This document shows, in pieces, positions 35,540 to 49,310 of a stretch of DNA of 64,000 nt (position 1 is the stretch's first letter; each line of letters opens with the position of its first letter). The notes beneath the pieces were generated by a model. It had not been told where the DNA came from. It did not search any database and worked only from the letters and a program-made list of their open reading frames with translations. The stretch comes from Medicago truncatula. Taxonomy: Eukaryota > Streptophyta > Magnoliopsida > Fabales > Fabaceae. The stretch is from positions 33,084,576 through 33,148,575 of the forward strand of contig NC_053043.1 of assembly GCF_003473485.1 (NCBI RefSeq), written 5' to 3'. Made by a program: the position numbers and the translations under genes.

Positions 35540-35605
35540 AAATGAGAAGCCCAAAAAGATTGATTAGGGTTTCGGTGTTGCTTTCTTCCCTACCTATTTA
35601 AACCC
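35540..35605 (+). promoter_or_regulatory. snoRNA unit 1 promoter: telo-box plus TATA
   Basis: AAGCCCA (35547-35553, part of a site II-like element), telo-box TTAGGGTTT (35564-35572) and TATTTAAA (35595-35602) lie within 60 bp. Telo-box plus site II promoters are known for plant snoRNA and ribosomal protein genes. The same order recurs in front of units 2 and 3. A Pol II start is expected about 30 bp after the TATA box. Confidence 0.75.
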
Positions 35606-35868
35606 TTCGCCATCTTCTTCAGTTCTCAATCACCGCATCTTCTTCAAGCTCTCCTTTTCAATTCGCATAAATTTTTTCAATTTTTTTTCTTCTGATTCTT
35701 AGTTTATATAGTTATGGTTTCATCTTTGATTTTGCGGCAGTGATGATCAATTATGTATACCATCAAACTTTGAAAGCTAAATAAGCTTGTTGATGCCAAC
35801 TCATACAATCTGAGCCTATTTTTACTTTACTTGTTTTATTGATTTGATTTAGCTTTTGAGCTTCTAAA

Positions 35869-36008
35869 GGCAACAATTTAGAGTCTCTGATTCGCTCGAT
35901 CAATAGTGATTTCAGTGCTGTACGTTGCCGATAACAATTTGGAACTGAGATTCTGGCATTTGCCTTAGATTTTTCTTCAGGCTTATGCATTCAGATGTTG
36001 CTATATTT
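35869..36008 (+). ncRNA. H/ACA snoRNA, family a, copy 1 (unit 1)
   Basis: Two hairpins. Hairpin 1 is closed by GGCAAC/GTTGCC, with an inner stem CTGA/TCAG and a pocket between. The hinge reads ATAACA (35931-35936), fitting the H box ANANNA. Hairpin 2 starts GGAAC at 35941, with inner GGCAT/ATGC. The terminal box is ATA (36003-36005) three bases before the end, where copies 3 and 4 have ACA. The base of hairpin 2 has one mismatch. It presumably guides pseudouridylation in rRNA or snRNA; the target was not worked out. Confidence 0.75.
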
Positions 36009-36304
36009 TCAATTTTATGTTATATCAGTGCTTATGTTGGTTCTTATCGTAGCTATGATTTAAAAGCTTATATCAGTGTTTTGAGATTTCTTTTTTGATT
36101 AATCGTTGGTCTTACCCTATAATTATTTCAATTCAATATCAGTTAACACTCTTATTCGCATTTCATTAGTCCCACTATGTTCTATTTGAGTTAATTTCTG
36201 GTGATTATTTGTTTCATTAATGGTGACTTATGGTTATATAGTGTTTCTTTTCCAATTCAATATCATTTAATACTCTTATTTCCGTATCCTTTCTCTCCCT
36301 AAGT

Positions 36305-36395
36305 CCTATATGAGGAGATTTCCTTGAATACCAAGGGCCATTTTGGGTGCGTAATTAGTGTGTTGAATGTTCTTGATTTGGAAGTCTGAAACAAA
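36305..36395 (+). ncRNA. Candidate C/D-like conserved segment, unit 1
   Basis: ATGAGGA (C box-like, one mismatch to RTGATGA) and TCTGA (D box-like, about 36386) lie ~80 bp apart, and similar pairs occur at the matching place in units 2 and 3. The C box is imperfect and unit 2 has TTTGA for the D box. It may simply be conserved spacer in duplicated DNA. Confidence 0.25.
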
Positions 36396-36459
36396 ACTTG
36401 GGCCCTTATTTTAGTCTAATTGAGTGTTTAGGATTTTAGTATGTTGAGATAAACAAAAA

Positions 36460-36600
36460 GGCAACAATTTAGAGTCTCTGATTCATTTATTTGATAGTGA
36501 TTTCAGTGCTGTACGTTGCCAATAATAATTTGGAACTGAAATTCTGGTATTGGCCCTTGTTTTATACCCCAGGCTTATGCATTCATATGTTCCTATATTT
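36460..36600 (+). ncRNA. H/ACA snoRNA, family a, copy 2 (unit 1)
   Basis: The GGCAAC/GTTGCC hairpin (36460-36520), hinge AATAATAA, then hairpin GGAAC/GTTCC (36532-36593). The terminal box is ATA at 36595-36597. It duplicates copy 1 inside the same unit, about 590 bp downstream. Confidence 0.78.
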
Positions 36601-36687
36601 TCAAGATATTCATTGCCATATGTATACCTTTAAGATCTCTAAATAATCTAATTTCTTCAATTGTTTAATGTTGTTGAGAGGGTAAAA

Positions 36688-36826
36688 GCCAATTTGCAGA
36701 GCAAGAGGGTCTACTAATGGCTTGTACTTGCATTGAAGGTTGGCAAAATTAAGAAACATTGGCGATTCTCCGTGCCTATCAAATTAATTTAATTTTGAAT
36801 ATGGCCTCGAACAAGTCGCTACAATT
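36688..36826 (+). ncRNA. H/ACA snoRNA, family b, copy 1 (unit 1)
   Basis: 139 nt. Hairpin 1 is GCCAA/TTGGC (36688-36744) with inner CAAG/CTTG. The hinge AAAATTA fits the H box. Hairpin 2 is GGCGA/TCGCT with a clear pocket on both sides of the inner GCC/GGC stem. Box ACA lies at 36821-36823, exactly three bases before the predicted 3' end. It is identical in sequence to the unit 3 copy across the whole RNA. The target is unknown. Confidence 0.82.
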
Positions 36827-36849
36827 TAAATTGTTAATTTAATTTTTCT

Positions 36850-47427: not shown

Positions 47428-47886
47428 GGTTAAATATGTTTTTGTTCTTTATAAATATTTAAACTTTTTGTTTTAATCCTTTAAAATTTTCGTTCAACTT
47501 TTGGATTCCCAAAAGTTTTACACACCACATTTTGGTCTATACTTTTAAGTCAACTTGTGTGTATCATTTGAAATTTTGAATTTTTTTCTCAATCAAATTG
47601 AGTACATTGTAAAATTCTCTTTTGCAAAAGTTTAGTTTCTTTTTAACGAAAGATGAATTAAATATAATTCTATGTTTTGACAATTAAAAATCATATTTAA
47701 TTGAAGAGATTATAATAATATTTTAAACATTCATGCAAAGAGTCATTTAAAATTTTGAATCATACATATGAAGAACAAAAAATGGTGATGCAAAACTTTT
47801 GGAAGAACAAAAGTCAAAGAGAAATATTAGGTAAACTAAAATGGAAAATTGAAATATTTATAGGGATTAAAAAATTATTTATCCCT
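47428..47886. mobile_element. Mutator-like MITE, family M2, diverged copy
   Basis: GGTTAAATATGTTTTTGTTC at the left, TTATAGGGATTAAAAAATTA plus TTTATCCC at the right, and the inverted core TTAACGAAAGATGAATTAAA. It is older than the copies at 22029 and 50492. Confidence 0.6.
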
Positions 47887-48389
47887 TAATTTAAAATTTA
47901 AACGTGTTAAATACATTATTCTAAAATAAAAAAATTCTTTAAACATTTTAACTAATGCCTTTAACATACTTGTTAGCATTTCCCTAGTCTTTCTGTTACT
48001 CTTTAAACTTTTATTCTTTAAACTTTTATTACTTGTTAACATACTACTTTTGCTAGGTCATTAGCACAAAGAAAGGTGATGTTGGGAAATGTCTTCATAA
48101 ATCACACAATTTTAATATAACAGGACACTTGCTTATCAAATTTAATCAATACACCAACTTAACACGACATTAAGATAATTACACTAAGAAGTAATAAAAT
48201 CATGCTAGTTTATTCTAATATCCTCCTAAAGTTACAAAGGACCAATGCGGCCTATTTTGTTCTGAATAACTAAACTAGATCAACGACAAATAAATCACTT
48301 TAGCATTAGTTTGAGTTATGAGTAGGAAAATATGGGTGTGGTGGTAGCAATAACCAACGAAAATTAGACTAGTATTTGAGGAAATCATA

Positions 48390-48482
48390 TATGGGCTAAA
48401 AGGCCCAAAAAGAAGAAAGGATAATACCGTAATATCAGTAGCAACAAATTAGGGTTTTACGCACTGTTGATCTATTTAAACC
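48390..48482 (+). promoter_or_regulatory. snoRNA unit 3 promoter: site II, telo-box, TATA
   Basis: GGGCTAAAAGGCCCA (48393-48407), TTAGGGTTTT (48449-48458) and TATTTAAA (48473-48480). The 40-bp gap between GGCCCA and the telo-box is wider than in unit 2 (about 10 bp). Confidence 0.8.
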
Positions 48483-48629
48483 CCTTTGTTCTCTTCTTCT
48501 CTCGTCCATTGCCGTTTCTTCATCGTTTTATTTTATTTACCCCCCTAACCCATTATCAACATGTTTCTCTTCCACTTCAATATCAATTAATACTCTTATT
48601 CGTAAGTCAGATTCCACTATGTTCTATAT

Positions 48630-48715
48630 GAGGCGATCCTATGTAGGGGATATATGGGTTTATGAACAAGTGTTTTAAATGATCTTGATCTGGCAGTCTG
48701 AAACAAAACATTTCT
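48630..48715 (+). ncRNA. Candidate C/D-like conserved segment, unit 3
   Basis: TATGAGGCGA (about 48626) and AGTCTGAAAC (about 48693) repeat the pattern of unit 1. The evidence is positional only. Confidence 0.22.
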
Positions 48716-48892
48716 TGTGCCTTTTGCGATTCAGATGAACTTTAGTCTCGTTGATTGGTTAATTAAATGGTTTGAACCTGGTTTTTACGCATGATGATAA
48801 TTTGATATAACAATGGTTGTGATTTAATTTCCGATTAATTTTCAATGATACTGTTTTTTGGTGTTATGTGAATTTGTTGAGGAAAAAAAGAA

Positions 48893-49036
48893 GGCAACAA
48901 ATTAGAGTCTCTGATTCACTTATTTGATGGTGATTTCAGTGCTGTACGTTGCCAATAATAATTATTTGGATCTGAGATTCTGGCATTTGCTTGTTTTATG
49001 AGGCTTTTGCATTCAGATGCTCATGCTCCTACATAT
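48893..49036 (+). ncRNA. H/ACA snoRNA, family a, copy 4 (unit 3)
   Basis: GGCAAC/GTTGCC hairpin (48893-48953), hinge AATAATAATTA, second hairpin from about 48966, box ACA at 49031-49033. The base of hairpin 2 is weaker than in copy 3 and the 3' strand carries a small insertion. Confidence 0.72.
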
Positions 49037-49171
49037 TCACATTTTTTCTCATATTAATGTTAAAATACCTTAAAATAAGGTTCTGTTTTTTGTTTTGGTT
49101 TTTATGGTGACATTTAGTGCAAAGTTTTGTTCGTTTTTAATTACCTAAGGTAGAATATCTAAATGGTTAAA

Positions 49172-49310
49172 GCCAATTTGCAGAGCAAGAGGGTCTACTA
49201 ATGGCTTGTACTTGCATTGAAGGTTGGCAAAATTAAGAAACATTGGCGATTCTCCGTGCCTATCAAATTAATTTAATTTTGAATATGGCCTCGAACAAGT
49301 CGCTACAATT
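49172..49310 (+). ncRNA. H/ACA snoRNA, family b, copy 3 (unit 3)
   Basis: 139 nt, ACA at 49305-49307. Identity with the unit 1 copy at 36688-36826 extends a few bases beyond the 3' end, while sequences before the 5' end differ. It probably shares one transcript with the family a copy 135 bp upstream. Confidence 0.82.

What the first reader, a model, noticed from the sequence alone, without database searches (positions are those of the whole stretch)
35540..49310. Three related snoRNA transcription units, each encoding two different H/ACA snoRNAs
Units at 35.5, 42.4 and 48.4 kb share order and orientation: promoter, family a H/ACA RNA, family b H/ACA RNA. In the sequence, closing stems GGCAAC/GTTGCC, GGAAC/GTTCC, GCCAA/TTGGC and GGCGA/TCGCT are kept, H-box-like hinges are present, and ACA or ATA lies three bases before each 3' end. 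Plant snoRNAs are known to be made from polycistronic Pol II precursors. That this locus is such a family is inference. No protein frame explains the conservation.
Basis: partly seen in the sequence, partly recalled or inferred. Interest (0 to 1): 0.85.

Follow-up and report, generated by a model that had tools for sequence, protein, structure and literature searches.

The report
Plant snoRNA gene cluster, three copies
Three related plant genes in a row appear to make small guide RNAs that mark uridines of ribosomal RNA for conversion to pseudouridine; one guide is absent from the RNA-family library searched and is a candidate for the guide of a mapped site in 5.8S rRNA for which a 2021 review knew none in Arabidopsis.

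Summary
Family b is the catalogued plant H/ACA snoRNA snoR86 (Rfam RF00303; 98-103 bits, cut-off 40). Family a has no Rfam match but has the hairpin-hinge-hairpin-tail anatomy, and these RNAs are better conserved between units than the spacers. All three units start with Telo-box, Site II and a TATA-like motif.

New here is a target reading. The 3' pocket of family a matches 5.8S rRNA at U78 (GUGAAU[UG]CAGAAU), ranking first of all scored rRNA uridines for both pocket variants. A 2021 review says Psi78 is mapped in Arabidopsis, one base from the yeast site, and that the yeast guide snR43 was not found there. The pocket register gives U78, not the yeast-equivalent U77. The snoR86 pockets best fit 18S U306 and U362; the 5' pocket of family a fits 25S U2419 only weakly.

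The spacers also hold a conserved hairpin of unknown role. Expression and pseudouridylation were not tested.

The parts
35548..35610 (+). Promoter of unit 1: Site II (35548), Telo-box (35565), TATTTAAACCC
   Evidence: sequence, motif positions
35735..35817 (+).
   Evidence: 81.1 bits, cut-off 47; the only match that the genome search reported, a lower bound
35869..36008 (+). Family a H/ACA snoRNA, copy a1 (ATA box; one mismatch in the 3' closing stem)
   Evidence: 5' hairpin alone z -3.29
36239..36402 (+). Conserved long hairpin in the spacer of unit 1 (role unknown)
   Evidence: z -4.85; arms 35/39, 37/41, 36/39, 34/41 identical to the unit 2 and unit 3 hairpins, loop 45/72 and 33/57
36460..36600 (+). 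Family a H/ACA snoRNA, copy a2 (ATA box); 3' pocket letters as in a3, fit 5.8S U78
36688..36826 (+). snoR86 H/ACA snoRNA, copy b1 (Rfam core 36699-36825)
   Evidence: 103.2 bits, E 1.4e-18
42396..42460 (+). Promoter of unit 2: Site II (42396), Telo-box (42413), TATTTAAACCC
42590..42602 (+). Relic of the 5' end (box C) of snoR116 in unit 2; the similarity to unit 1 ends here
   Evidence: unit 1-unit 2 match ends at 35747/42602; no snoR116 match in unit 2
42680..42875 (+). Second, diverged copy of the spacer hairpin, with a near-perfect inner duplex
   Evidence: z -4.60, inner 21-nt duplex with 2 unpaired bases
42915..43092 (+). Conserved long hairpin in the spacer of unit 2
   Evidence: z -4.30
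43238..43377 (+). Family a H/ACA snoRNA, copy a3 (ACA box; hinge not exactly ANANNA); 3' pocket fits 5.8S U78
   Evidence: 161.5 bits with R1, z -2.86, target
43399..43537 (+). snoR86 H/ACA snoRNA, copy b2
   Evidence: 98.3 bits
48392..48486 (+). Promoter of unit 3: Site II (48392, 48402), Telo-box (48450), TATTTAAACCC
48559..48714 (+). Conserved long hairpin in the spacer of unit 3
   Evidence: z -3.67
48893..49036 (+). Family a H/ACA snoRNA, copy a4; 5' hairpin intact, 3' hairpin lengthened by 6 nt, so its 3' pocket may be impaired
49172..49310 (+). snoR86 H/ACA snoRNA, copy b3
   Evidence: 103.2 bits

Best explanation
Three segmentally duplicated polycistronic snoRNA genes of a plant (probably Medicago), each read from its own Telo-box/Site II/TATA promoter and cut into box H/ACA guide RNAs. 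Family b is snoR86; its pockets best fit 18S U306 and U362. Family a is an H/ACA guide absent from Rfam; its 3' pocket directs pseudouridylation of 5.8S rRNA at U78, and its 5' pocket perhaps the 25S site equivalent to yeast Psi2416. Shown here: sequence, predicted structure, promoter motifs, conservation and complementarity to recalled rRNA. Inferred: transcription, processing and modification.
For: snoR86 and snoR116 by covariance model. Family a: two pocketed hairpins in the minimum-energy fold of a2 and a3; RNAs conserved above spacers. A Telo-box with a Site II within 150 bases occurs 3 times in 64 kb, at the heads of the three units, against a mean of 0.27 in 100 first-order Markov sequences. 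Family a also lies on C3 directly after snoR100 and snoR117 behind a Telo-box and Site II, and snoR86 on C4 behind such motifs. Target: with fixed pocket borders 5.8S U78 is the best-scoring rRNA uridine for both pocket variants, score 29 against next best 23 and 18, reached by 0 of 200 letter-shuffled guides for each; with looser borders 4 of 200 and 0 of 200. Psi78 is a mapped site in Arabidopsis and the yeast-type guide was not found there (PMC8351944 section 8). A diverged 5.8S relic in this genome keeps the core GTGAATTGCAGAAT (L016). The snoR86 hit U306 falls at yeast Psi302 by recalled 18S; the family a 5' hit falls at yeast 25S Psi2416 by hand comparison with recalled yeast sequence, which fits the spacing to Um2417 and Um2421 (yeast site list in PMC8307265).
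Against: No expression data. The other 5.8S relic (L015) differs in the core. The 5'-pocket hit of family a is not significant (72 of 200 shuffles as good; a different site ranked first, 125 of 200), the 5'-pocket hit of snoR86 is weak (23 and 27 of 200) and its 3'-pocket hit modest (7 of 200) with close rivals in 18S. No family a stem pair has changed on both sides, so covariation neither supports nor refutes the structure. Whole a1 folds otherwise; a1 has a mismatch in the closing stem and an ATA box; a4 has a broken 3' spacing. The two C3 copies lack the 5.8S pocket.
Confidence: 0.8

Rival explanations
1. The units are genuine snoRNA genes, but family a guides only through its 5' pocket; the 5.8S complementarity of the 3' pocket is chance, and Psi78 is made by another snoRNA or a stand-alone synthase.
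For: The 5' hairpin is nearly invariant in 6 of 6 copies while the 3' hairpin varies; the C3 copies do not carry the 5.8S pocket; a4 breaks the spacing.
Against: Top rank of 5.8S U78 for both pocket variants, 0 of 200 shuffles as good with fixed borders, 4 and 0 of 200 with looser ones, at a mapped site; the core letters of the pocket are kept in the four window copies although neighbouring letters differ.
Confidence: 0.25
2. Partly dead duplicates: only one unit is active and the others are decaying copies left by segmental duplication.
For: Flanks are duplicated too (34809-34916 and 41447-41554, 87%); snoR116 is decayed in unit 2 and without a match in unit 3; a1 and a4 have defects.
Against: All three promoters keep Telo-box, Site II and the TATA-like motif; snoR86 is 140/140 identical between units 1 and 3 while the spacers have diverged.
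Confidence: 0.15
3. Not RNA genes at all: repeats or mobile elements that happen to fold.
For: The region holds several other direct and inverted repeats.
Against: Rfam matches far above cut-off; the genome searches reported only 4 snoR86 and 6 family a places in 430 Mb (lower bounds by the tool's own words); linkage to other snoRNAs at further loci.
Confidence: 0.01

Closest known systems
snoR86 (Rfam RF00303), plant box H/ACA snoRNA
   Same: Family b matches the model over its full length in 3 of 3 units and at a fourth place on C4
   Different: Nothing essential seen; here it is triplicated and linked to family a
Plant polycistronic snoRNA genes with Telo-box/Site II promoters (PMC4660826, passages)
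   Same: Promoter elements, several snoRNAs (both classes in unit 1) on one strand in one unit
   Different: Family a is not in Rfam; the spacers hold a conserved hairpin
snoR100-snoR117 pair (Rfam RF01219, RF01423), here on C3
   Same: A family a copy with the same 5' hairpin follows the pair directly
   Different: Its 3' pocket does not fit 5.8S
Yeast snR43 (guide of 5.8S Psi73 and 25S Psi966, PMC8307265)
   Same: Proposed job: a pseudouridine in the same GAAUUGCAG stretch of 5.8S
   Different: Target one base further 3' (plant U78; yeast-equivalent U77); no Rfam snoRNA of any organism matches family a; a functional parallel, not a membership
Yeast snR11 (25S Psi2416) and snR49 (18S Psi302)
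   Same: The best-scoring sites of the 5' pockets of family a and snoR86 fall at these yeast sites
   Different: Weak scores; the correspondence rests on recalled rRNA sequences
Arabidopsis dicistronic sno-miRNA genes (PMC4660826, passages)
   Same: A hairpin next to H/ACA snoRNAs in one unit
   Different: Three of the four hairpins here are strongly mismatched for a miRNA duplex; no small-RNA data

Membership tests
Box H/ACA snoRNA (family a) | Two hairpins with internal pockets, joined by a hinge | tested here: met
   Minimum-energy fold of a2 and a3; in a1 only the 5' hairpin when folded alone, whole a1 folds otherwise; in a4 the 5' hairpin only
Box H/ACA snoRNA (family a) | Box H (ANANNA) in the hinge | tested here: met
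   Exact in 5 of 6: ATAACA in a1, ATAATA in a2, a4, a5, a6; a3 has ATAATT, not exact
Box H/ACA snoRNA (family a) | ACA three bases from the 3' end | tested here: met
   ACA in a3, a4, a5, a6; ATA in a1, a2 (sequences); mature ends are assumed, not mapped
Box H/ACA snoRNA (family a) | About 14-16 nt from pocket to box H or ACA (rule recalled) | tested here: met
   Counted by hand: 5' pocket 15 in a1, a2, a4 (a3 has no exact box H); 3' pocket 14 in a1, a2, a3 but 20 in a4
Box H/ACA snoRNA (family a) | Compensatory base changes in the stems | tested here: inconclusive
   0 of 28 pairs changed on both sides in 6 sequences; 98-100% of cells paired in the 5' hairpin, 70-82% in the 3' hairpin; the percentage paired does not exceed column shuffles (341 of 500 as high)
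Box H/ACA snoRNA (family a) | Stable RNA bound by dyskerin/CBF5, located in the nucleolus | not testable with these tools
   no RNA data held
snoR86 (RF00303) | Score above the curated cut-off over the full model | tested here: met
   98.3-103.2 bits against 40, positions 1-123 of 123 in 3 of 3 window copies
snoR116 (RF01422) | Score above the curated cut-off | tested here: met
   81.1 bits against 47
Telo-box/Site II polycistronic snoRNA gene | Telo-box and Site II upstream of a TATA-like motif | tested here: met
   3 of 3 units
Telo-box/Site II polycistronic snoRNA gene | One common precursor transcript | not testable with these tools
   order, strand and spacing only
Guide of 5.8S Psi78 | Pocket complementary on both sides of U78, leaving U78-G79 unpaired | tested here: met
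   a2/a3 pocket: 6 Watson-Crick pairs 3' of the site; 5' of it 5 Watson-Crick, then G-U, Watson-Crick, G-U. a1/a4 pocket: 7 and 5 pairs before the first mismatch.
Guide of 5.8S Psi78 | Psi78 lost when the guide is absent | not testable with these tools
   bench experiment
microRNA precursor (spacer hairpin) | 21-nt duplex with few unpaired bases, and small-RNA reads | tested here: inconclusive
   Best duplex has 7, 7 and 6 unpaired bases (both strands) in h1, h3, h4 and 2 in h2; no reads; in 42600-43120 the only Rfam match up to E 1 is MIR6224 at 17.3 bits, cut-off 171

The most novel reading that the evidence does not exclude
Family a is the unidentified plant guide of 5.8S Psi78: an H/ACA snoRNA whose pocket is set one base further along than the yeast site, which explains why the plant pseudouridine sits next to, not at, the yeast one. 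Its paralogue behind snoR100-snoR117 shares the 5' guide but not this one, so the 5.8S guide was gained or lost by replacing one pocket after duplication.
Probability: 0.6. Interest if true: 0.6.

Novelty: new member of a known kind. Interest (0 to 1): 0.42.

Why it matters
The 2021 review (PMC8351944, sections 8-10 seen) lists mapped plant pseudouridines without a known guide and says of 5.8S Psi78 that the yeast guide was not identified in Arabidopsis. This locus gives a concrete, testable candidate for that site, a reason for the one-base difference from yeast, and a case of guide change between paralogues. It also adds a family with no Rfam match, which annotation based on Rfam alone would pass over.

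Tried and rejected
Attempts to read real plant rRNA: 5.8S (three diverged relics, one of them below cut-off), SSU and LSU families (no usable answer), DNA queries for parts of 25S and 18S, a 5.8S pattern (none), genome contigs (none) and viral contigs (none); of real rRNA genes only the first 374 bases of 18S were read, ending where retroelement-like sequence begins. A pattern search of viral contigs for family a found none. 3' pockets of the two C3 copies: no convincing site in recalled rRNA, U2 or U6; best were 18S U512 (17 of 100 shuffles) and 18S U1229 (82 of 100). A protein-coding origin was set aside because the one frame shared by units 1 and 2 is not listed in unit 3. A dispersed-repeat origin of the spacer hairpin was set aside provisionally: 3 places in the genome, all in these units (that search skips very common words and did not report the diverged copy at 42680). 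A half-spacer of unit 1 (36010-36240) folds no better than chance (z 0.36). Human 18S Psi406 as equivalent of U362 is recalled; the passages seen in two human papers did not show it. Sun et al. 2019, the mapping paper for Psi78, is not held, so its result is taken from the review.
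Full report
What is there. The window is part of a 430-Mb genome in 42 contigs, at C2:33084576-33148575. Matches to MIR2629 (above cut-off) and MIR2617 (just below), which I recall as Medicago families, and the genome size suggest Medicago; no tool names the organism. Three units at 35.5, 42.4 and 48.4 kb lie on the same strand. Unit 1: promoter, snoR116 (box C/D), a1, spacer with hairpin, a2, snoR86. Unit 2: promoter, snoR116 relic, two hairpins, a3, snoR86. Unit 3: promoter, hairpin, a4, snoR86.

Identity of the RNAs. Rfam's curated cut-offs are passed by snoR86 in 3 of 3 units (98.3, 103.2, 103.2 bits; cut-off 40) and by snoR116 in unit 1 (81.1; cut-off 47). 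Family a has no match up to E 5. Genome-wide searches, whose counts are lower bounds, report one further snoR86, at C4:42295796-42295921, no further snoR116, and two further family a places, C3:31281097 and C3:31293823. At the first C3 place family a follows snoR100 (77.5 bits) and snoR117 (67.9 bits); at the second the neighbours score 36.0 (below cut-off) and 47.6 bits and no Telo-box lies nearby, so I take that copy as probably inactive. Absence from Rfam is not absence from the literature: PMC5122169 (abstract and the first part of one section seen) counts 74 plant H/ACA families, and the plant snoRNA database and snOPY could not be searched here.

Anatomy of family a. 5' hairpin: GGCAAC/GUUGCC closing stem, pocket AAUUUAGAGUCU / UGCUGUAC (one letter differs in a4, two in the L009 copy), upper stem CUGA-UCACU / AGUGA-UCAG (a3 letters). 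Hinge with AUAAYA in 5 of 6 copies. 3' hairpin of the window copies: GGAAC/GUUCC (exact in a2 and a3), pocket UGARAUUCUG / AUUCAKAU, upper stem GCAU-GGCC / GGCU-AUGC (a3 letters), then ACA or AUA. In the 5' hairpin 100% of cells pair in the closing stem and 98.1% in the upper stem; the variation is to G-U or, once, a mismatch. The 3' hairpin is looser (70.0 and 81.8%), mostly because the C3 copies and a4 differ. There is no two-sided compensatory change, and the percentage paired does not exceed column shuffles (341 of 500 as high), so the structure rests on folding (z -1.92 to -3.42 for the four family a stretches folded, a1 as its 5' hairpin only), on conservation and on the match to the class, not on covariation.

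Promoters. In 64 kb there are 9 Telo-boxes and 23 Site II elements; 3 Telo-boxes have a Site II within 150 bases, and these are the three unit heads; first-order Markov sequences give 0.27 on average over 100. PMC4660826 (passages) gives this pair as the mark of plant polycistronic snoRNA and ribosomal-protein genes. That a single Pol II precursor is made and cut here is inference from that paper.

Targets. I scored each uridine of recalled plant 18S, 25S and 5.8S rRNA (leaving out the ends) as the open U of each pocket, against 200 letter-shuffled guides. Family a 3' pocket: 5.8S U78 first for both variants (29; next 23 and 18, 23 and 19); 0 and 0 of 200 shuffles as good with fixed borders, 4 and 0 of 200 with looser ones. 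Family a 5' pocket: with fixed borders the best hit is 18S U1179, not significant (125 of 200); with looser borders 25S U2419 (8 pairs on one side, 3 on the other), 72 of 200. snoR86 5' pocket: 18S U306, 23 and 27 of 200. snoR86 3' pocket: 18S U362, 7 of 200 in both, with two close rivals in 18S (U1688 and U1107). The looser rule was brought in after the first scan because I had seen the 25S fit by eye; that hit should be discounted accordingly. The genome's own 18S fragment has the U306 stretch unchanged, and U306 scores the same on it; the U362 stretch differs from the recalled one at one base (356) outside the pairs, and lies too near the end of the fragment to have been scored on it. By recalled sequences U306 falls at yeast U302 and U362 at human U406. 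PMC8307265 lists yeast 18S Psi302 (snR49), 25S Psi2416 (snR11) and 5.8S Psi73 (snR43) (passages of its table).

Why 5.8S U78 matters. PMC8351944 (section 8 read in full) says two 5.8S pseudouridines were mapped in Arabidopsis, that Psi78 corresponds to yeast Psi73 but lies at the adjacent uracil, and that snR43 could not be identified in Arabidopsis. In the pocket of family a the pairs GAAU and CAGAAU leave exactly U78-G79 open. The recalled 5.8S has the expected letters at the four positions that the review names (A47, U78, G79, G155). For 18S and 25S the recalled numbering drifts from published positions (best 11 of 15 at an offset of 3 and 4 of 5 at an offset of 2; 18S 1219 entered as G after PMC7464842, the review has C, and 25S 1465 taken from PMC4660826), so those site numbers are approximate. 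PMC12273003 (passages) reports two 5.8S pseudouridines conserved in rice, maize, Arabidopsis and soybean, without positions in the text that I saw. Consecutive uridines are ambiguous with BID-seq (PMC11541003, passage), so U77 versus U78 needs a method that resolves them. No guide for Psi78 turned up in the listings and passages that I saw (searches; openly licensed full texts only, supplements not read); that is not proof that none is published.

Evolution. Flanks are shared between units 1 and 2, so the units arose by segmental duplication. The 5' hairpin is kept in six of six family a copies; the 3' pocket differs between the C2 and C3 copies. Which state is older cannot be told from one genome.

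A further feature. Each unit's spacer holds a long hairpin (z -4.85, -4.30, -3.67, and -4.60 for a second one in unit 2). Among the first three the arms are 32-37 of 39-41 identical and the loops 34/64 to 45/72. With the fourth included, 91.3% of arm cells pair (98 of 500 column shuffles as high), with two two-sided changes, which 60 of 500 shuffles also reach, so covariation is suggestive only. The genome search with the unit 2 copy reported the three units and no other place. Its role is open: processing signal, precursor of small RNAs, or another RNA.

Verdict.

Noticed in passing
36239-36402, 42680-42875, 42915-43092, 48559-48714: Conserved long imperfect hairpins in the spacers of the snoRNA units, arms better kept than loops, reported nowhere else by the genome search; role unknown.
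   Followed up: partly
35735-35817: Box C/D snoRNA snoR116 at the head of unit 1, the only match reported in this genome; decayed in unit 2, no match in unit 3.
   Followed up: yes
24330-24451 (-): Match to the minor-spliceosome U11 snRNA, 46.7 bits against a cut-off of 39; the central GUAUGGCUAUCAAGACAUAU part fits well, the 3' stem poorly; gene or relic not decided.
   Followed up: partly
26999-27074 (+) and 27141-27212 (-): Two neighbouring tRNA genes on opposite strands, tRNA-Ile(AAT) and tRNA-Asp(GTC).
   Followed up: no
43682-43731: A 50-nt partial copy of the 3' end of snoR86 (TATGGTCTCGAACAAGTCCCTACA...) about 145 bases after the unit 2 copy; looks like a relic.
   Followed up: no
20864-20935 and 41154-41239: Matches to MIR2629 (60.8 bits, cut-off 60) and MIR2617 (44.6 bits, below its cut-off of 46.5).
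   Followed up: no
L021 and L022 (C9): Two 18S rRNA fragments, alike where compared by eye, both ending at the same point about 374 bases into 18S, where retroelement-like sequence begins.
   Followed up: no
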